Positions 8,571 through 62,360 of a DNA stretch of 64,000 nt are shown here, piece after piece. The translations under genes were made by a program, and so were the position numbers. Under the pieces are notes generated by a model. That model was not told the DNA's origin. It was given only the letters and a program-made list of their open reading frames with translations, and ran no database searches. The stretch is from Pseudopyrenochaeta lycopersici (Eukaryota; Ascomycota; Dothideomycetes; Pleosporales; Pseudopyrenochaetaceae), in the NCBI GenBank assembly GCA_003313425.1, contig NHZP01000050.1, positions 248,001 to 312,000 on the forward strand, in the 5' to 3' direction. Positions within the stretch are counted from its first letter, which is position 1, and each line of letters opens with the position of its first letter.

Positions 8571-9449
8571 TCAAGAAGTTCTTCCATCGAGCCCCGACGC
8601 GGCAAAGAAAATCTCTCCAGACTCAGCAACAAATCTATCCCGAGCGTCTCCCTCAGCCACGGCCTCATCATCCATATCCGCTCCTACCATATCCTCCCCC
8701 TCGCAGTCCCCCTCCTCATCCTCCCTTCCCCCAACCCTCGCCGTGTCAAACCGCCTCCACCTTGTTCCTGCCTCCAGTCCCATCTTCTCCACAGCGCCCC
8801 TCTTGAACCAACCCAGCCTCACTCTACGATACTGGACCGCACACACTTGCTCTCCCTCCGCCACAAAGCTGCGCCTCTCATCTATCGTACCGCTGTGCGC
8901 GGCAGTGACGCCCGGGTCCATAAAGTCGTTGAAGGGCAGAAGTAGCCGGACGCCGCTCGCCGCGATCGCTGATGAGATGGGAAGAACGAGGCGGCTATTA
9001 GAGGAGTGGGTGGTGTTCCTGCTCTCGCTAATGCTGGCGTTGAGGAGGGTATGGTATCCGACGATGAGGTAGATGGCCCCGCCCTCGCCGACGGCTTGCT
9101 CGAGCCAGGCGCGAGTAGCAGGTTCCTGAACCGCGGTGCGGAAATATAGCGTTGCATTTGTTAAATAGTACGACCGTGCTTCGTCTGCTTTGATGCGGAT
9201 AGAGGATTTTGCGCGCTTGGTAGCAGAAGCGGAGAGGAAAGAGGTCAGCTCGGAAACGAAGTTGCGATGGAGGTTAGAGCTGTGGGTGCTGCCGTAGTGA
9301 GTCTGCAGCTTCTCCGTCGCGTGAAGCGAGAGGTCACAGGCGGGGATGTGGAAATCTTGGTGCGGCTCATTGACGCTGGTTAGGAAACGACCGAGGCTGA
9401 TGGAGGAGTGGGGAAGGAGTATGGACGGGAGAAGGACGCTGGAGGGCAT
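8571..9449 (-). CDS. Candidate fungal gasdermin-like pore-forming protein (RCD-1/HET-Q1 type)
   Basis: Intronless, 292 aa, close to the ~250-290 aa of fungal gasdermin-like proteins such as RCD-1 and HET-Q1. Seen directly: an N-terminal amphipathic beta-like stretch (S-I-S-L-G-R-F-L, about residues 15-22), a central segment with A-R-S-Y, a predicted strand in the I-Y-L-I-V-G-Y-H-T-L context (about 130-140), a basic region near 205-240, and a strongly acidic tail from about 240 to 280. Family knowledge: fungal gasdermins have a cytotoxic N-terminal domain held inactive by a short C-terminal tail, and most are encoded beside a subtilisin-like or CHAT (caspase-like) protease that removes the tail. 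The next gene, divergently transcribed, is exactly such a CHAT protein. The assignment is from recalled family pattern plus this context; a structure prediction would be decisive. If wrong, it is a conserved fungal protein of unknown function. Confidence 0.55.
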   Translation of the reverse strand: MPSSVLLPSILLPHSSISLGRFLTSVNEPHQDFHIPACDLSLHATEKLQTHYGSTHSSNLHRNFVSELTSFLSASATKRAKSSIRIKADEARSYYLTNATLYFRTAVQEPATRAWLEQAVGEGGAIYLIVGYHTLLNASISESRNTTHSSNSRLVLPISSAIAASGVRLLLPFNDFMDPGVTAAHSGTIDERRSFVAEGEQVCAVQYRRVRLGWFKRGAVEKMGLEAGTRWRRFDTARVGGREDEEGDCEGEDMVGADMDDEAVAEGDARDRFVAESGEIFFAASGLDGRTS

Positions 9450-9992
9450 GGTCCGCGGCTGAAATCATTGACTACGGCGCTGAACTGAAGGGTATTTGAT
9501 ATACTACGTTTCATACAAGGTGGATGGGCTGCAGATGGCTATGCCTCCTCCGTCGTCAGGCTAGATAACTCCACCCTTGAGGATTCTAGACAACAGAGAA
9601 AGCAAGAGAGAATGACCAATACATGGGCTCTGTGTACTCAGTTTGGGTTCGGAAAGTGCAAATAGCAATTTGTTCACCCCAAGAGGCAAGTCGATTTATT
9701 TATGCGAGTTTGTCTCGCAGGCTACTTATGGCCTATCAAGGCTCAACCTCGACGCCTGACGACGTGGCTGTGTTCAGCCGCACGGATGCTGCCGTCTCGT
9801 AGCGCCAAGTCGTGGCCTATCGAGGCTGGACCACGATGCTTGGCAAGGCGGCTGTGTTCAGCCATGCTGCCTTCACCATGCAGCTGAGCCTCGAGCGATA
9901 AGCCTTATCACCGCTCTCGAGATATACTCCAGAAACAGAGGACCCCACTTACCAAAATCTTTGCCTTCACGTAGGCACCACACGACACGGTT
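9450..9992. promoter_or_regulatory. Shared divergent promoter of gasdermin-like and TPR-CHAT genes
   Basis: The two start codons point away from each other and are 543 bp apart, so this stretch must carry both promoters. No TATA box was confidently identified. It contains an imperfect direct repeat (see separate entry). Confidence 0.5.
9731..9880. repeat. Imperfect direct repeat in the divergent promoter
   Basis: Two copies of a roughly 65-bp unit, 84 bp apart (starting 9731 and 9815). Both begin GCCTATC-A/G-AGGCT and share GTGGCTGTGTTCAGCC / GCGGCTGTGTTCAGCC followed by GATGCTGCC / CATGCTGCC. The function is unknown. Confidence 0.55.
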
Positions 9993-12900
9993 ATGTTTCG
10001 CCATGCCAGGCAAAAGGCCATTGCTGTCCTAACTAAAAAGGCCCAGCATCCAAAGAAGGAAGAAACAAACAAAGTCCTGGTTGCGAGAGCACCTACAGAT
10101 AATGATAATCTTCTGAAAAGTCTTTCTGCCTCGGCAACAACATCTCAAAACCGTTTCAAACAGACTGGAAATGTGGTCTACCTGAATGAGGCTATTCGAT
10201 TGACGAGGCAGATAGTTGCAACAGCGAGGAAATCTTCTGAGCACCACTTGGAAGGGTTGAACAACTTGGGACTTCAACTCAACTGGCGTTTCGTGCACAC
10301 AGGAAGCCTGGACGACTTGGAAGAAGGGATTCAAGTTAACTTACAAGCCATTGAGGCAACGCCAGTCCATAGCTCGGACCAAATCGCGCTTTTGAACAAC
10401 TTGGGAAACAAATATCATCGCAGGTATGATCGCATGGGGAGTTTGAAAGACCTGGAAGAGGCCATCCGAGTCACCCGTAAAGCTATTAAGCTCTCAGCTC
10501 CCGACCATCCAAGTGTTGCTGGTCCCCTACTCAACTTGGGAAACAAGCTTGAAAGACGATTCGAACGGATGGCAAAATTGGAAGACATTAATGAGGCTAT
10601 CCAAGTTACACAGCGAGCAATGGATCTCCGTATCGCAAACCGTATGGATATTACATCAGAGTCAGACGCCTTGGGGACTAAATATGAAAGACTGTGGGAA
10701 CGCACGCAAAGATTAGAAGACTTACAAGAATCGATACGCCTTAACCGACAAGCTGTTAACTCTGCAACTCAAAGTAATCCATATTATCCAGGGACACTGG
10801 CCAACTTGGCAAATAAGCTTCAGCATCGATTCGAATGTACTGGAAATTTAAGAGATCTAGACGACGCTATCCGGTTTGCCCGACAATCAATCAAATTCAC
10901 ACCCAAAAGCAGTATAGATCTTGGTGTTAGATGGACTAGTTTGGGAAGTAAGCTTGACGCTCAATATCAATGTACTGGGAAAATGCAATACTTGGAGGAA
11001 GCCATACAGGCAAACAGGCAATCAATCAAAGTGACACCGAAAGGTCATGCGGATCTTCCACACTTTCTCGATAGTCTAGGCACCAAACTCGCGCATCATT
11101 ATACATGCACGAGGAATACTGAGTACTTGTCAGAGGCCATCGCCATGTCTCAACAAGCAGTCAGACTTACACCTGAAAATGATTACCGTCTGGCAGGTAA
11201 GCTGGATAGGCTGGGGTTAAGATTGCAAATGCGATATGATCGCACGGGAGAGAAAGACGCACTAGAGGCAGCTATTGAGTTGAATCAGCAAGCTCTCGAC
11301 CTCGCGGTTGATGGCGATACCACCTTCGTCAATGCACTGCTCAATATGGGTAACAAGCTTGAAACAAGATTCAAATATGGCAAAAATATGGAAGACATTG
11401 ACGAGGCAGTCCGGGTTACCCAGAGAGCAATTGAACTTACACCAAAGACCTCGCCGAAGCTGGCAGCCTCACTGAATAATCTGGGAAATAAGTTGTATAC
11501 GCGATATTGCTTTATTGCGGACGATGATGACCTGAAAGAATCGATTCGTGTCAGTCGACAGTCCGTCAAGTTAACGCCAGAGGACAATCCAGATCTTGCC
11601 ATCCGACTGTACGCCTTGGGCACTCAGCTATCCTCCTCGCGATCTGTAAGTGTACCCGAAATTCTTGAGGTCTTTCTGCAGGGTTGGAACTGCTCCAATG
11701 GAATCCCGTTTTTACGAATTATGGCCGGTTTTGAAACTATACAGCTCCTTCAGGACGAAGGTGATTACACCAGAGCATACAAGCTATGCATAGATGTTAT
11801 CGATCTCCTACCTCGCGTTCACAACAAGTCTCTAAGACACCACGATCAACAAGATGTTGTGTCTTACTTCTCCGGTCTAGCTAGCAAGGCATGTGCTCTT
11901 GCCCTCCAGGTCGGAGAGCCAATAGAAAAAGCCCTCCAAATACTTGAACAAGGACGCGGCGTCATACTTGGACTTCTTATCGATGATCGAAGCGACATCT
12001 CGGATCTGAAGGTAGCTCATCCACAACTCGGCTCCCTATACGAAGCACTTCGATTGGAGTGCAACATGCCCATGGAATATATTGAAGACGAACAGCTGCG
12101 CCAGAAATTCCAGGAAAGACGAGCCAAAGCCATTATAGAGCTGAATGAGTGCACAAAAGAAATACAAAATCTGCCGGGGTTCGGCCAATTCCAAAAGGGA
12201 CTTACGACCAAGCAAATGATGCAATGTGCAACAGCTGGCTGCATCGTTGTTGTAAATGTTACAGACTTGCGGAGTGACGCCATCATAGTATCATCTACTG
12301 GATGCAATGCTATTCCTCTTCCGAACCTTGATGCTCCCACCGTGGCCGGTTGGGCTGCTCAGGACTTTTCTGCCGATTCCAAAACTCCAGCGGAACAAGG
12401 TGCCAAGAACAAGTACCTTCGTGGCTTTCTATCCTGGCTATGGCGAGGATGTGTGAAGTTAGTGTTGGATGAGCTCGGCTTCGACGTTAAGCAGACAGCA
12501 GACGACCTCCCACGAATCTGGTGGATTGGCACCGGCCTCGCCAGTTCCTTCCCATTTCAAGCCGCGGGCGAGTGCGACGGGGGGCAGACAGAAAACGCAT
12601 ATTCTCGTGTCATTTCCTCATATTGTCTTTCCATCAAGGCTCTCGCCTATAGTCAAGCACGCGCCCCAATCAGGCAGCGCATTGATTCTCAAGAAAGAAA
12701 GATGCTTATCGTCACCATGGCCACCACGCCTGGTGGTAATAAATCACTTCCAGGCACCATGAAAGAGAAGCAAGAGATCACTGCACTCTTGGGAAGCTCT
12801 ATTTCCTTGAAAACTCTAGACCAGCCAGATGTTGCTAGCGTCCTAGAACAGATTCAGCAATGCGAAATAGCACATTTTGCATGCCACGGAGTATCAAGCC

Positions 12901-13334
12901 GGAGCGACCCTTCAGAAAGCGGTCTGCTACTGCAGACAGCCAAGACGGGTACTTCCGAGCCCGTTCTTGACATTCTCAATGTCAGAAATGCCATCCAAGC
13001 GAATCTATCTAAGGCGGATATTGCATATCTTTCAGCCTGTTCAACAGCAGACAACCAAGTGGAAGATCTGAAAGATGAAGTCCTCCACGTTGTGAGTGGG
13101 TTCCAGGTGGCTGGGTTTAGGCATGTGGTGGGGTGCCTATGGTTATCCATGGAACCTGCATCTGTGGAGATTGCGAAGGCATTTTACTCTGGGCTTCGTT
13201 GTGGCGATGTCGTACGTTATGACGATCGATCTGTTGCGCTCGCATTGCACAAGGCGGTCATGAGTTGCCGAGAGAACGCAAGATACCGCAGATCGCCTCT
13301 TTATTGGGCACCTTATGTCCATTTTGGCGCATAA
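9993..13334 (+). CDS. TPR-CHAT caspase-like protease
   Basis: Intronless, 1113 aa. Residues ~35-560 hold about twelve TPR-like helical repeats of ~42 residues with the recurring pattern L-N-N-L-G-N-K-L...R-Y...G...D-L-E-E-A-I...R-Q-A-I. Residues ~800-1113 form a CHAT domain (caspase HetF Associated with TPRs; clan CD cysteine peptidase fold). The catalytic His is His965 in H-F-A-C-H-G and the catalytic Cys is Cys1016 in L-S-A-C-S-T. The C-terminus Y-W-A-P-Y-V is typical of the family. In bacteria TPR-CHAT proteins activate gasdermins or act with type III-E CRISPR. In fungi, CHAT genes commonly neighbour gasdermin-like genes. Here the protein would sense a signal through the TPR array and cleave the acidic tail of the neighbouring product. 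Both catalytic residues are present, so an active enzyme is expected. The start is the first Met of the frame; no signal peptide, so cytosolic. Confidence 0.9.
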   Translation: MFRHARQKAIAVLTKKAQHPKKEETNKVLVARAPTDNDNLLKSLSASATTSQNRFKQTGNVVYLNEAIRLTRQIVATARKSSEHHLEGLNNLGLQLNWRFVHTGSLDDLEEGIQVNLQAIEATPVHSSDQIALLNNLGNKYHRRYDRMGSLKDLEEAIRVTRKAIKLSAPDHPSVAGPLLNLGNKLERRFERMAKLEDINEAIQVTQRAMDLRIANRMDITSESDALGTKYERLWERTQRLEDLQESIRLNRQAVNSATQSNPYYPGTLANLANKLQHRFECTGNLRDLDDAIRFARQSIKFTPKSSIDLGVRWTSLGSKLDAQYQCTGKMQYLEEAIQANRQSIKVTPKGHADLPHFLDSLGTKLAHHYTCTRNTEYLSEAIAMSQQAVRLTPENDYRLAGKLDRLGLRLQMRYDRTGEKDALEAAIELNQQALDLAVDGDTTFVNALLNMGNKLETRFKYGKNMEDIDEAVRVTQRAIELTPKTSPKLAASLNNLGNKLYTRYCFIADDDDLKESIRVSRQSVKLTPEDNPDLAIRLYALGTQLSSSRSVSVPEILEVFLQGWNCSNGIPFLRIMAGFETIQLLQDEGDYTRAYKLCIDVIDLLPRVHNKSLRHHDQQDVVSYFSGLASKACALALQVGEPIEKALQILEQGRGVILGLLIDDRSDISDLKVAHPQLGSLYEALRLECNMPMEYIEDEQLRQKFQERRAKAIIELNECTKEIQNLPGFGQFQKGLTTKQMMQCATAGCIVVVNVTDLRSDAIIVSSTGCNAIPLPNLDAPTVAGWAAQDFSADSKTPAEQGAKNKYLRGFLSWLWRGCVKLVLDELGFDVKQTADDLPRIWWIGTGLASSFPFQAAGECDGGQTENAYSRVISSYCLSIKALAYSQARAPIRQRIDSQERKMLIVTMATTPGGNKSLPGTMKEKQEITALLGSSISLKTLDQPDVASVLEQIQQCEIAHFACHGVSSRSDPSESGLLLQTAKTGTSEPVLDILNVRNAIQANLSKADIAYLSACSTADNQVEDLKDEVLHVVSGFQVAGFRHVVGCLWLSMEPASVEIAKAFYSGLRCGDVVRYDDRSVALALHKAVMSCRENARYRRSPLYWAPYVHFGA

Positions 13335-55764: not shown

Positions 55765-56414
55765 CGAGGCTGAGGCAGAGGCAGAGCACGGACTGCAGCA
55801 TATCGCCCGCCTATTCCCCTGGCATGGTAGGCAGAGGCTAGCAGCTAGGAGGCTCTGGAAGCTTCTCTCGTACCACCAGGATAGCAGCGACAGCCAGGTA
55901 GCTCAAGATCAGCAGAAGTACGTGCTGCGCCTGTTTGAGGAGCTGATCTGCTAGGAGGTTGTCCACCAGCCGTTTGAGAGCGGCGTTGTACACTTCCTTG
56001 CCGTGCTAGGTATTAATCCAGAGACGCTGCGGCTGCGTAGGGCAGCAGAGTATTTAATACTGCTTGGCTCGCTTGTGTACTGCGTAAGGGTAATAGCAGC
56101 TGAGGCCTTCCTGCCCTCCGCGCAGCGCAGTAATCAAGGCGCTACAGAGACGCTAGTACTACTACAGAAGCGAGCTAGGCACCTCGTAGACGGCTCGCAC
56201 AGCCTAATGAGCATAATGCTAAGCCTGCTAGCATACGCTAAGTTTATCTCGCAACGGACGCCTGGCAGCATTGCAGGTAGTATGTGGTGGTTAGCTAATT
56301 GGCAGACGTTCTTTATTAAGGGCCGTCCTGTTGTGCTAGCGCAGCTCTGCGTGATGGCGCAGGGTATTGTAGCAGAGGCTGCGCAGGTACTGTGGGAGCA
56401 GGTGCTCTGGGTAC

Positions 56415-56627
<213 letters not shown>

Positions 56628-56632
56628 GGGCG

Positions 56633-56672
<40 letters not shown>

Positions 56673-58970
56673 CGGCTAGCAGCCCGCCACCTCTTAATCT
56701 CGCAGCGATCCAAGACGACGTGAGTATAGTACGGCGTGGGCTCTCGTTTCTCTCAGCAGCACGCCTGCAGGAGGGCGAGCAGTGGATGCTGCAGCAGCTG
56801 TCAACTACGCCAGCAGGCCAGCGCTTATATAAGCAGCAGAAGGGGGTAGCAAGCGAGCAGCAGGAGGACGCGCAGCAGCCAGTACAGTGGAACAGACGCA
56901 GGGTGCGGCAGCACCTACGCCAGATTAATCGCTTTCTTAACCTACTCTGCCTCGCGGTCCACATAACAGGCGGCCAGCCAGCGCGTAGGTCTGAGCTGCT
57001 CTTAGTTCGGTGGCGGAACGGGGTGCTTCAGGATCGCAACCTCTACGTAATTGATGGGCAGGTAACGCTAGTAACGCGCTACTATAAGACGCAGGCGCAG
57101 TGGGATCAGCCTAAGGTAGTAGCGCGCTTCCTGCTAGAGGCAGTAGGGCAGCTAATTGCGGCGTACCTGCTCTACGCACGGCCACTGCGGGCGATGCTGC
57201 TCAGCGGGCTGGGGAAGCAGGCGTCAGCGCACACGACTGACTATCTCTGGGCTAATAAGCAGGGCCCGTGGGAGACAGATTAATTAACGCGTGTGATAGC
57301 GGCTGAGTCAGCAGCCTGGCTGGGCACGCGGTTGACGACGCAGGACTACCGCCATACTGCTGTAGGGATTGGGAGGGAGGTAGTAGGCGAGCGGTTTGCT
57401 GCCAGCTATCGCGCAGAGCTAGCTTAAGGTAGGACAGCAGAGGAGGCAGAGGCAGGCAGCGAGGACGATGGTGAGGATCTGCTTGAGCTACAGAACGGGC
57501 GGACGACAGCGATTGGCATGGTAGCGTACGCTGTGTAGGCTGATCTGGTGCAGGGGCTTAGCGCGCGGTCAATTGACGTGTTCCGCACGCTGAGCTGTAC
57601 GTGGCACGCGTTTCTTGGCTTTGCAGAGGCAGGGGCAGGAGTAGGAGTAGGGGCAGGAGTAGGAGTAGGGGCAGGAGCAGGGGCAGAGAAAGAGAAGCAG
57701 CAGGAGAAGCAGGTATCAAAGCGGAAACAGGGGGGAGGCGTTACTGAGCAGGCGCAGGATAGTAGCGAGCACAGCTGCAGGCAGAAGAGGGTAAGGGTAG
57801 GTGAGGAGGGTACCGCGGCTGTAGCAGCAGTATCTGCTTAAGGCAAGGGCAATAAGGAGAGGAGAGGGCTCGAGGACGCTATTTGATAGGTGCTCTGTCT
57901 CTTAGCCAATTATCTAGTTAAGTATAAGTTAGCTACACAGGAAATTACACTACAGGCTGTTGTACGAGGGCTTAGTCCGCTGGTAGTAGTACTACTAATA
58001 GGCGGAGGTAAGACGCTACTCGCATTTGCTCCAGCAGTACTTGAGCAGCAGCAGGCAGAACAGAAGGCAGAGATAGGTAGTATTATAATCTTTGTCGTAC
58101 TATATCGCGCACTAATCTAGGATATGCTTGTACGGCTTAGGTAGGCAGGTATTAAGGTAGCTGAGTGGAAGGCAGGGATTGAGGGCGACTATTAGAACCG
58201 CCGGACGCTAGCTACTATTATAGTAGTTAGCGCTGATTACGTAGGGAGTAGTAGCAGGCAGTTTCTCTCATACGCTAGCTTACTTGCACGGCAGGGAGTG
58301 CTACAGTAGGTAGTAGTTAATAAGTCGCATGTTATTATTACAGCAGACTCGTGGCGGACAAAGCTGCAGAGGCTAAAGGATCTTTAGCTACTGCCGTGCT
58401 AGTAAGTACTACTTACAGCTACGTTGCCGCCGTCGCAGGAGAGGCAGCTACAGGAGGTAATATTAATACGCGGAGCAACAATTATCCGCGTAGAGACAAC
58501 GCAGCGACGTAGGACGCAGTACACAGTAGTTCGCTGCAGGCGTAAGGTAGAGCTACAGGAGACAGCTGTAGAGCTCGCGCGCAGGCTGATAGACGAGGCA
58601 AGGTTACTTAGTAGCGCGCAGGTAGCAGAGGTAGCAGTAGGACGAGAGGTAGCAAGAGCGAAAGGGGTCGTGTACTGTCGCAGTAAGGTGCTGTGTGAGC
58701 AGCTAGCAAGGCGGCTAGGCTGCGTAGCGTACCACGCAGGCATGCCTGAGCGCGCAGAGGTGCTAGAGAGGTGGAGGTAGTTAGAAGGGCTAATTACGTG
58801 CACGTCAGCGCTTAGAGTAGGAGTAGATATCGCGCAGGTGCTCTTCACGCTGCATGTAGAGAGGCCGTAGGGGATAGTTGATTTCGTGTAGGAGAGCGGG
58901 CGAGCGCGAGGGGCAGGCAAGGCAGTGATTCTAGTCGTGCAAGGACAGCAGTGGCAGAAGGCTAAGGTAG

Positions 58971-59035
58971 AGGCAGAGGCAGAGGCAGAGGCAGAGGCAG
59001 AGGCAGAGGCAGAGGCAGAGGCAGAGGCTGAGGCT
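58971..59035. repeat. (GGCAGA)n hexanucleotide array
   Basis: About ten copies of a 6-bp unit giving Glu-Ala repeats in the helicase frame, just after motif VI. Confidence 0.9.
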
Positions 59036-59479
59036 GAGGAGCAGCAACTGATGAACGATAGCGACGTGATGGACGCGTTTATCAGCACAGTAGGCTGTCA
59101 AAGAGCAGTAATAAGTTAGTATATAGACGGCAGGCGATTATCTTGCAGACAGCTACAGGCAAGAGCAGATACAGGAGTAGGCGGCGCAGCAGACAGGGCA
59201 GCAGAAGGCGCAGAGATAGCGTTCTGCGATAACTGTGAGGAGCAGGAGTATGGAGGGCAGAAACAGTGGCGGGACGAGGAGCAGGTACAGGCGAGGCAGG
59301 AGCAGGTAGTACGGGCGAAGCTCGATGAGCTATCGCAGACGACGTGTCCATACTGCTAGGGTATGTTGCATGAAGTATTCAGGAGGGAGGAGGGCAAGGT
59401 GGCAGTACAGCAGGAGGAAGAGGAGGAGGAGTATGAGGCAGGGCAGCAAGAGGAGGAAGAGGCGGAGCAACAGACTAAG

Positions 59480-59700
59480 CTGCAGACTGAGCAGCAGGCC
59501 GAGCAGGCCGAGCAGCAAGCTGAGCAGCAGGCCGAGCAGCAGGCCAAGCAGCAGGCCAAGCAGCAGGCTGAGCAGCAAGCTGAGCAGCAGGCCGAGCAGC
59601 AGGCCAAGCAGCAGGCCAAGCAGCAGGCCGAGCAGCAAGCTGAGCAGCAGGCCGAGCAGCAGGCCAAGCAGCAGGCTGAGCAGCAGGCCGAGCAGGAGCT
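59480..59700. repeat. GAGCAGCAGGCC/AAGCAGCAGGCC tandem array
   Basis: A 12-bp unit repeated about eighteen times with G/A and C/T variants, encoding (Glu or Lys)-Gln-Gln-Ala. Confidence 0.9.
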
Positions 59701-60196
59701 CGAGCAGAGAGAGCGCGAGGCGGCAGTACATAGTCTGTGGCAGTGTCCGCGGCTTGGGCAGGAGGGGTTGCAGGATATAGAGGAGCTGCGGAGCAGGGTA
59801 AGGTATAAAAAGGAGGTTCAAACGTGCTGGAAGTGTGGGATAATGGAGTATCTCTGCGGCAGAACGCAGGGTAGTAAGCAGAGCAGCAAGCAGAGCAGCA
59901 AGCAGAGCAGCAAGCAGAGTAGTAGGCAGGCAGATTGCGCATGGCCGAACGTAGCGATAGCAGTACTATATGGGCTACAAGTAGCAGCAGAGGCAAAAGC
60001 AAAGCTAGAGGTAGGTAGAGGAATTCAAGATAGTAGGCTTTGGGAGGTAGGATATCGAGGGCAGGTAGATAGTAAGGAGGAGCTAGGTAGATGGATAGGA
60101 GAGGTATATCAAGATAGGCGGGTTTTTAAGCATATTACTAGTAAAGGAGTAGCTAGTATTATATATAGTATCTTAGAAGAGGAAAGAAAGAAATAG

Positions 60197-62360
60197 ATAT
60201 AATTTATATAGTATTTATAAAAGAATAGTTAACTAGTTTAAATAAGAAAAAAGAAGAAGAAAGTAAAGTAATTTAATATAAGATATTAGAAAGAGAGTAA
60301 ATAATAGATAGCTGTATTTAATAAGAAAAAGAAGAAAGAGAGTAAAGTAATTTAATATAAGATATTAGAAAGAAAGTTAAGAATCGCTAGCTACTTTAAA
60401 TAATATATAGAATAGCTATAATTAGGTTAATTTTTAGAAAAGTTAAGTTTATATATAAGTTTTAGTAGAAAATACTATATAAATAATAATAGTAAGAAGC
60501 TATTGTATATAAAACTATTCTAGAAATATAGTAGTATAACTTTTATAGTAGTATAATAAAAAGTTATTAAAATATAATAGTTAAAAGATAAAAAGAAAAG
60601 AAGAAGAAAAGTATTAGACTTAATAATTAATAATATTATAGTAAAGAATAGTTTTTAAAGTAAAGTAGATAAAATAGTCGTAAAGAAGAATATAGTAAGT
60701 AAAGTAGTAGTAGGTAAAGCAGGAGTAAGTAAAGTAGAAGATAAAATAGTAGTATATAAGATAGTAGAAAGTAAGGTAGTAGAAAGTAAGATAGTAGAAA
60801 ATAAGATAGTAAGTCAAAGTATAGCTAAAGTAGTACTAAGTAAAAGAGTAGATAATATAGTAGTAGGTAATATAGTAGATAAAGTAGTAGATAGGAAAGT
60901 AGTAGGTAAAGTAGTTAATAAGTAAGTAGGTAAAATAAAAGTAGATAAAGTAGTAGTAAAAGAAGTAAAAGTAAATAATAGGTTAGGAGTATTAATAGGA
61001 AAAAAGAAGAGAAAAGTAAAATAATTAAAATATAGTATAAGGACAAGTAAATAATAAGTAATTATAATTAAAAGAAAGAGGTTAAAAAGAGTAAAGTAAT
61101 AAAAGATAAGTTAAAAAGTGCAAAGTAATAAAATAGAGGTTAAAGAAGAATAGATAGTAAGTAAGTAGTATTACTTAGAAAAAAAAAAGATAGTATAATA
61201 ATATAAAAGAGTATAGTATATACAGTTATTATAAGTAATAGAGTAGATAGTATAGTAGAAGTAATATTATAAAAGTTTAGAATTTAAAAAGAATAAAATA
61301 GTAGGAATAGTTTTAAAGTTAATAAGAATAATTAAAGTAGGTAGTAAGTAGTTAAAGACTAAGTAGTAAATAGTTTTATAAAAAAAACAAAAGTAAAGTA
61401 ATATAATATAGTAGAGAAGAATAGTAAGTTATAAGTAATAGAGTAGGTAGTATAGTAGAAGTAGTAAAATTAAGATTTAGCATTTTAAGAAAATAGGACA
61501 GTAGAAATAGTTTTAAATTTATTAAGAAATATTATTTAAAGTTAGTATAAGTAGATAGTAGTACGTAAAAAGTAGTTTTATGTTATTAAGGTTAAAAAAA
61601 GGAAAGTAATAGAATATAGTATAAGAGTAGAAAGATAGTAGGTATATAGTTTATAGTTTTAGTTAGTTAAAAAAGAGATTAGTAATTTAATATAGTATAG
61701 AAGGAGATAGATAGTAGAGTTTTAGTTTGTAGTTTTATAGAGTTAAGAGTTAAGAAAACAAAGTAATAGTATAGAAGTAATGGTATAGAAGTAATAGTAT
61801 AGAAGTAATAGTATAGAAGTAATAGTATAGAAGTAATAGTATAGAAGTAGATAAATAGTAAGGTTTTCGTAAGTAGTATTATAGAGAAAAGAAAAAGAAG
61901 AGTACAGTAATTATATAAAGTATTAAGGGAGAAAAATAGTAGGGATTCGCTAACTAGTTTTATAGGAGTAAGAGTTAGGAGAGTAAAGTAATATAATATA
62001 GTATAGAGAGAGATAAATAGTAGGGATTTACTAACTAGTTTTATAGGAGTAAGAGTTAGGAGAGTAAAGTAATATAATATAGTATAGAGAGAGAAAGATA
62101 GTAGAGATTTGCTAACCGCTTTTATAGAGATAAGAAAGAGGAGAGCAAAGTAGTATAATAGAGTATAAAGAGAGAAAGATAATAAGTTTTCGCTAAGTAG
62201 TTATATAAGGTAAAGAGTTAGGAGAGTAAAGTAATATAATATAGTATAGAGAGAGTAAGGTAGTAGGGGTTCGGTAACTAGTTTTATAGGGTAAGGAAGG
62301 GGGGAGTAAAGTAATAAGGTATAGTATAAAGAGGGAAAGATAGCAGAGATTTGCTAACCC
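60197..62360. repeat. Decayed ~81-bp minisatellite, purine-rich
   Basis: No gene. The clear part spans about 61,856-62,360, where units beginning TAGTAGGG/TAGTAGAG recur at 61937, 62018, 62099, 62180, 62261 and 62341 (period 80-81). The unit core GAGTAAAGTAATATAATATA also appears at about 60,263 and 60,342 (79 apart) and repeatedly between, so the whole stretch is probably one decayed array. It is strongly strand-asymmetric: few C on the plus strand. Confidence 0.75.
61762..61848. repeat. 14-bp tandem repeat
   Basis: Six units of AGTAATAGTATAGA, one with T-G-G in place of T-A-G, nested in the larger minisatellite. Confidence 0.9.

What the first reader, a model, noticed from the sequence alone, without database searches (positions are those of the whole stretch)
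8571..13334. Divergent gasdermin-like / TPR-CHAT protease pair
A 292-aa protein with features of fungal gasdermin-like pore formers sits head to head with a TPR-CHAT protein whose His965 and Cys1016 are both present. Fungal and bacterial gasdermins are known to be activated by a neighbouring protease. Here the protease uses a TPR array instead of an NLR-type sensor, so the trigger may be new. The whole locus is intronless, unlike the terpenoid genes.
Basis: partly seen in the sequence, partly recalled or inferred. Interest (0 to 1): 0.85.

Follow-up and report, generated by a model that had tools for sequence, protein, structure and literature searches.

The report
Fungal gasdermin with neighbouring TPR-CHAT protease

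Summary

The novelty claim fails. Reviews say most fungal gasdermin genes are clustered with protease genes, many partners carry TPR or similar repeats, NLRs are a small subset, and a TPR-bearing CHAT protease was shown to activate a gasdermin in Podospora anserina.

Added here: an invariant Arg238 at the core/tail junction as candidate cut site; further CHAT-linked gasdermin-like loci in the same genome (one decayed, one with a caspase-C14 gene, one with a CHAT-NLR); an unnamed family near two other CHAT genes. Cleavage, trigger and death are inferred.

The parts
8571..9449 (-). Gasdermin-like pore-former gene, 292 aa, no intron seen
   Evidence: ORF; relatives; fold
8757..9428 (-). Gasdermin core, residues 8-231 (span aligned to the RCD-1 pore structure)
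8736..8738 (-). Arg238 codon, Arg in 37 of 37 aligned sequences, at the core/tail junction; candidate cleavage site (inference)
   Evidence: also Arg in the C34 and C50 paralogues
8574..8735 (-). Acidic, mostly low-confidence C-terminal tail (residues 239-292), proposed inhibitory piece (inference)
9450..9992 (.). Shared intergenic region (putative two-way promoter) with an imperfect 51-nt direct repeat pair (9729-9779, 9813-9863, 80%)
9993..13334 (+). TPR-CHAT protein gene, 1113 aa, no intron seen
10182..11666 (+). About eleven TPR units in a 45-residue register (residues 64-558)
   Evidence: units cut at fixed 45-residue steps, mean pairwise identity 31%; TPR_10 E 1.8e-7, one stretch over threshold
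12429..13328 (+). CHAT protease domain (residues 813-1112)
   Evidence: PF12770, E 9.6e-36
12885..12887 (+). Catalytic His965 codon
13038..13040 (+). Catalytic Cys1016 codon

Best explanation
This is a two-gene fungal pyroptosis-like module. The TPR-CHAT protein is a sensor fused to a caspase-like cysteine protease. When its TPR array meets an unknown cue, the CHAT domain cuts the gasdermin near the junction of core and tail (I propose at or near Arg238). The freed N-terminal core then oligomerises into plasma-membrane pores and kills the cell, as defence or as rejection of a non-self fusion partner. Shown here: both genes, the predicted gasdermin fold, the His/Cys pair, recurrent linkage and matched divergence of the two genes. 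Inferred from the known family: cleavage, pore formation, death and biological role. The cut site is my own hypothesis.
Against: No sequence match to a solved gasdermin: 0 PDB hits with the single sequence at E up to 1 and 0 with the 37-sequence profile at E up to 10. Model confidence is moderate, and residues 247-273 fall below pLDDT 50. For 15 of the 25 relatives on longer contigs no CHAT partner was seen on the same contig in the capped list; in Penicillium cosmopolitanum, Trichoglossum hirsutum and Lindgomyces ingoldianus the listed CHAT relative lies on another contig. One of the four own-genome loci (C27, a fragment) has no CHAT gene on its contig in the list. The window protein departs from its family in the tail: a 7-residue insertion, and Gly256 where 35 of 37 have Glu. 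A protease structure was not obtained. Nothing here shows expression, cleavage or killing. The matrix correlation partly reflects species phylogeny, and its pairs were chosen for sharing a contig.
Confidence: 0.85

Rival explanations
1. The pair is real but the gasdermin is controlled without cleavage, as RCD-1 is by meeting an antagonistic allele. The TPR-CHAT partner would regulate it in another way or be an unrelated neighbour.
For: The closest fold match is RCD-1, which is reported not to be controlled by cleavage (PMC12881547 passages).
Against: Recurrent linkage and matched divergence of gasdermin and CHAT; the catalytic pair is kept in 43 of 43 aligned sequences; a 54-residue tail beyond Arg238 with an invariant position, Asp253.
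Confidence: 0.08
2. The pair is a decaying or inactive relic. The window copy has diverged in the tail and may no longer be cut or lethal.
For: Tail departures of the window protein; its N-terminus lacks a segment seen by a crude pattern in 10 of the 120 listed relatives; decayed sister pair on contig C34 and fragment on C27.
Against: Both window ORFs are uninterrupted over 292 and 1113 codons; catalytic residues and the residues invariant in the family are kept; TpA/ApT in both genes is 0.72 and 0.63, below the 1.01 of the first 50 kb of the window.
Confidence: 0.06
3. The 292-aa protein is another type of membrane-inserting beta-sheet protein (MACPF/CDC-like) rather than a gasdermin.
Against: The first nine rows and the first 13 are gasdermins; the first nine gasdermins superpose at rmsd 4.8-8.1, the pleurotolysin, complement and perforin-2 rows down to rank 18 at 21.7-27.7.
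Confidence: 0.02

Closest known systems
Podospora anserina gasdermin / TPR-bearing CHAT protease two-gene cluster (Clave et al. 2022; not held, known here only through reviews PMC12881547 and PMC10197012)
   Same: Gasdermin gene next to a TPR-CHAT gene; activation of the gasdermin by the CHAT protein was reported there.
HET-Q1 / HET-Q2 of P. anserina
   Same: Short gasdermin with a small C-terminal piece removed by a protease (cut likely at F238, ~5 kDa lost; PMC12881547 passages).
   Different: HET-Q2 is a subtilisin-like serine protease and the two genes are idiomorphs at one locus; here the protease is CHAT and both genes sit side by side.
RCD-1 of Neurospora crassa
   Same: Best fold match (8jyz).
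   Different: RCD-1 is triggered by an antagonistic allele, not by cleavage; 10-11% identity in the structural alignments.
Bacterial gasdermins with adjacent proteases
   Same: Same fold (8sl0, 9a84, 7n51); adjacent protease genes as described in the reviews.
   Different: Bacterial proteins; no PDB sequence match detected here.
Craspase TPR-CHAT (Csx29)
   Same: TPR array with a CHAT domain; weak profile matches to 7zoq and 7y9x (E 0.016 and 0.052).
   Different: Works in a CRISPR-guided complex (abstracts in the listing); no such partner was seen among the ORFs examined here.

Membership tests
Fungal gasdermin | Gasdermin N-terminal pore-forming fold | tested here: met
Fungal gasdermin | Detectable sequence similarity to characterised gasdermins | tested here: inconclusive
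   0 PDB hits with single sequence or profile; HET-Q1 was not available for comparison
Fungal gasdermin | Short C-terminal tail after the core | tested here: met
   core aligned to 231, tail 232-292 largely acidic and low-confidence
Fungal gasdermin | Pore formation and cell death | not testable with these tools
   needs expression
CHAT protease | CHAT domain above Pfam cut-off | tested here: met
   124.1 bits against a cut-off of 24
CHAT protease | Catalytic His and Cys | tested here: met
   43 of 43 in alignment A3; in A4 Cys 39 of 39, His 38 of 39 with one gap (P0141)
CHAT protease | Proteolytic activity on the neighbouring gasdermin | not testable with these tools
   needs a biochemical or co-expression test
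Protease-clustered fungal gasdermin (Q2-like two-gene cluster) | Protease gene within 10 kb, recurrent linkage | tested here: met
   543 bp apart; 3 of 4 own-genome loci; 10 of 25 relatives on longer contigs, from a capped list
NLR-type sensor | NB-ARC or NACHT domain | tested here: not met
   none in the window TPR-CHAT at E up to 1; an ORF with CHAT and NACHT/NB-ARC matches lies beside another gasdermin-like gene on contig C1
Heterokaryon-incompatibility (het) locus | Alleles or idiomorphs segregating in the population and causing incompatibility | not testable with these tools

The most novel reading that the evidence does not exclude
In this fungus CHAT proteases would be a common execution engine wired to exchangeable sensors and partners: plain TPR (window), an NLR (C1), a caspase-C14 gene in the same cluster as gasdermin and TPR-CHAT (C50), and an unnamed non-gasdermin family beside two further CHAT genes (C29, C59), with cutting of gasdermins after an invariant arginine (Arg238) rather than after the aspartate that animal caspases prefer (the last point recalled).
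Probability: 0.2. Interest if true: 0.65.

Novelty: new member of a known kind. Interest (0 to 1): 0.35.

Why it matters
It is an intact-looking gasdermin/TPR-CHAT pair in a genome that also holds a decayed sister pair, a gasdermin/caspase-C14/TPR-CHAT cluster and a gasdermin-like/CHAT-NLR pair. One organism therefore offers several sensor designs on what is probably one execution route, which makes the open question of what triggers fungal gasdermins easier to test. The invariant Arg238 gives a specific cleavage prediction. The pair itself does not change the accepted picture.

Tried and rejected
Pfam, NCBIfam and PADLOC gave nothing above threshold for the 292-aa protein; the two weak Pfam hits (dihaem cytochrome c, Nup88) are below cut-off and were rejected. 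NCBIfam and PADLOC did not name the TPR-CHAT protein either.

RIP was considered as the cause of decay of the C34 pair; TpA/ApT is 0.54 (gasdermin part) and 1.02 (CHAT part), so RIP is not supported there. Recent repeat expansion of the TPR array was considered; the units are on average 46% identical in DNA, at most 59%, so the array looks old (no shuffled control). A missing upstream exon for the TPR-CHAT N-terminus was sought with four relatives' N-termini, six best matches each; none lay in the upstream intergenic region.

Caveats on counts. The fifth gasdermin-like locus (C1:2523374-2524465) was found only by scanning CHAT neighbourhoods, so it is left out of the chance estimate; its fold was not tested. 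Only Pfam families CHAT and caspase C14 were searched genome-wide; S8 proteases were not, so the C27 fragment may have another protease partner. The same-contig count uses only the best 120 of 848 CHAT relatives and is a lower bound; contig identity was inferred from equal longest-contig lengths, which on chromosome-size contigs does not prove adjacency (consecutive tags do for P0015/P0076). P0038 has no contig length and was not counted. The gasdermin alignment used 37 of 47 sequences (the window's and 46 relatives); fragments, the fused P0035 and near-duplicates were left out. The CHAT alignments used 43 and 39 sequences of the 121 in hand.

The Clave et al. 2022 paper was not held and was not read; what is said of it comes from reviews. 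Seen: PMC12881547 (passages and section 21), PMC10197012 (passages and section 15), PMC10989679 (passages), PMC11138114 (passages); other papers only in search listings. No claim of absence from print is made.

Full report
What is there. Two divergent ORFs sit at the stated coordinates: 8571-9449 on the minus strand (292 aa) and 9993-13334 on the plus strand (1113 aa), with 543 bp between start codons. The window lies at G000:C50:248001-312000 of a 62.7-Mb assembly in 188 contigs. The relatives that carry an organism name are ascomycetes as far as I know the names (taxonomy was not looked up), so the host is most likely one too; it was not identified further.

The 1113-aa protein is a TPR-CHAT protein. 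CHAT scores E 9.6e-36 over residues 813-1112. Residues 965 and 1016 are His and Cys and occur in 43 of 43 aligned sequences; in a second alignment of 39, Cys is in 39 and His in 38, with one gap. Residues 64-558, cut at fixed 45-residue steps, give eleven TPR-like units with mean identity 31% in protein and 46% in DNA, so the array looks old. No NB-ARC or NACHT domain was found. Its first 35-50 residues are not shared with the four relatives compared.

The pairing is not chance. A whole-genome search with the gasdermin gives 4 loci and a CHAT search gives 10 (lower bounds). Three of the 4 gasdermin-like loci lie within 10 kb of a CHAT match, chance about 1.3e-7. In detail: (i) the window pair; (ii) C34, a head-to-head pair at 44% and 50% identity with one stop in the gasdermin match and five in the CHAT match, near ORFs that look transposon-derived by eye; (iii) C50:74701-81812, gasdermin-like ORF, a caspase-domain (C14) frame of 766 codons and a TPR-CHAT frame. 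The fourth, C27, is a fragment with one stop and no CHAT match on its contig. A further divergent gasdermin-like ORF on C1 (2523374-2524465; HMM E 7e-12 among the ORFs scanned) is head to head with an ORF whose NACHT, NB-ARC and CHAT matches are each below Pfam's cut-off in a protein scan of most of that frame (E 0.0004-0.0014), although CHAT passes the cut-off in the genome search.

Elsewhere the same holds in part. Of 25 relatives on contigs of at least 5 kb (of 45 with a contig length), 9 share the longest contig with a CHAT relative among the 120 listed of 848, and P0035 is a gene model that joins a gasdermin-like part to a CHAT part; for the other 15 no partner was seen in that capped list, and in three named species the listed CHAT relative lies on a different contig. 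P0015 and P0076 carry consecutive locus tags in Penicillium longicatenatum. For 11 pairs (these nine, the window pair and C50) the gasdermin and CHAT distance matrices correlate at r = 0.97, with 0 of 10,000 permutations as high; without C50 r is 0.96. Species relatedness contributes to that figure.

A candidate cut site. At the end of the aligned core and just beyond it, the family keeps Trp231, Arg238 and Asp253 in 37 of 37 sequences; between Arg238 and Asp253 no residue is shared by more than 29 of 37. The C34 and C50 paralogues also have Arg there; the C1 relative's tail could not be aligned. An invariant arginine at the start of an otherwise loose acidic tail suggests recognition by the protease. 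This is a hypothesis. The window protein departs from its family around it: a 7-residue insertion, and Gly256 where 35 of 37 have Glu.

How it most likely works. A cue recognised by the TPR array activates the CHAT protease, the gasdermin tail is removed, and the core forms plasma-membrane pores and kills the cell. Genes, predicted fold, catalytic residues and linkage are shown; the rest is inferred from characterised fungal gasdermins.

What is known. PMC12881547 section 21 says more than 80% of fungal gasdermin genes are clustered with protease genes, that a large fraction of the partners carry WD40, ANK or TPR repeats, that NLRs are a small subset, that about 17% of the protease domains are cysteine proteases including CHAT, and that a TPR-bearing CHAT protease was shown to activate a gasdermin in P. 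anserina. PMC10197012 section 15 gives 19% near CHAT genes within 10 kb. PMC11138114 passages report a CHAT-domain protein encoded by one of the two idiomorphic hetB alleles in Aspergillus fumigatus.

Verdict. The pair is a new member of a known kind. The most interesting leftovers are in the same genome: caspase-C14 genes beside CHAT genes at two places (C50, and C1 at 1400879-1411949), and a two-copy unnamed family near CHAT genes on C29 and C59 (26% identical over 190 aligned columns, no Pfam match, no other copy found at E up to 0.01). That family was noticed because it lies near CHAT genes, so its linkage is a lead and not a tested association.

Noticed in passing
L015/L016 (G000:C50:74701-81812): Three-gene cluster: gasdermin-like ORF, caspase-domain (Peptidase_C14, E 1.3e-13) frame of 766 codons, TPR-CHAT frame; a possible two-protease route to one gasdermin.
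   Followed up: partly
L029-L031 (G000:C1:1400879-1411949): A 688-codon caspase C14 frame lies between two CHAT frames; no gasdermin-like ORF was found by profile in the 30 kb examined.
   Followed up: partly
L033:4136-5017 (C29) and L027:2991-3869 (C59): Two copies (26% identical, no Pfam match) of an unnamed protein family, the only ones found in the genome, each near a CHAT gene: head to head on C29; on C59 3.7 kb away with a hAT transposase-like ORF between. Possibly another CHAT partner.
   Followed up: partly
L038:7374-8465 and L039:3-3371 (G000:C1:2523374-2529371): Divergent gasdermin-like ORF head to head with an ORF carrying CHAT plus weak NACHT/NB-ARC matches, that is, a probable CHAT-NLR pair in the same genome.
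   Followed up: partly
L017 (G000:C34:375649-379604): Decayed head-to-head sister of the window pair, stops in both genes, near transposon-like ORFs (by eye); RIP indices not raised.
   Followed up: partly
window 56000-62300: Strongly strand-asymmetric stretch: the plus strand is nearly without C at 60.2-62.3 kb (GC skew 0.80 in 60001-62000), with a repeat-rich stretch full of TAG triplets upstream at 57-59 kb.
   Followed up: no
window 9729-9863: Two 51-nt imperfect direct repeats (80%) in the shared intergenic region of the pair.
   Followed up: no
   Followed up: no
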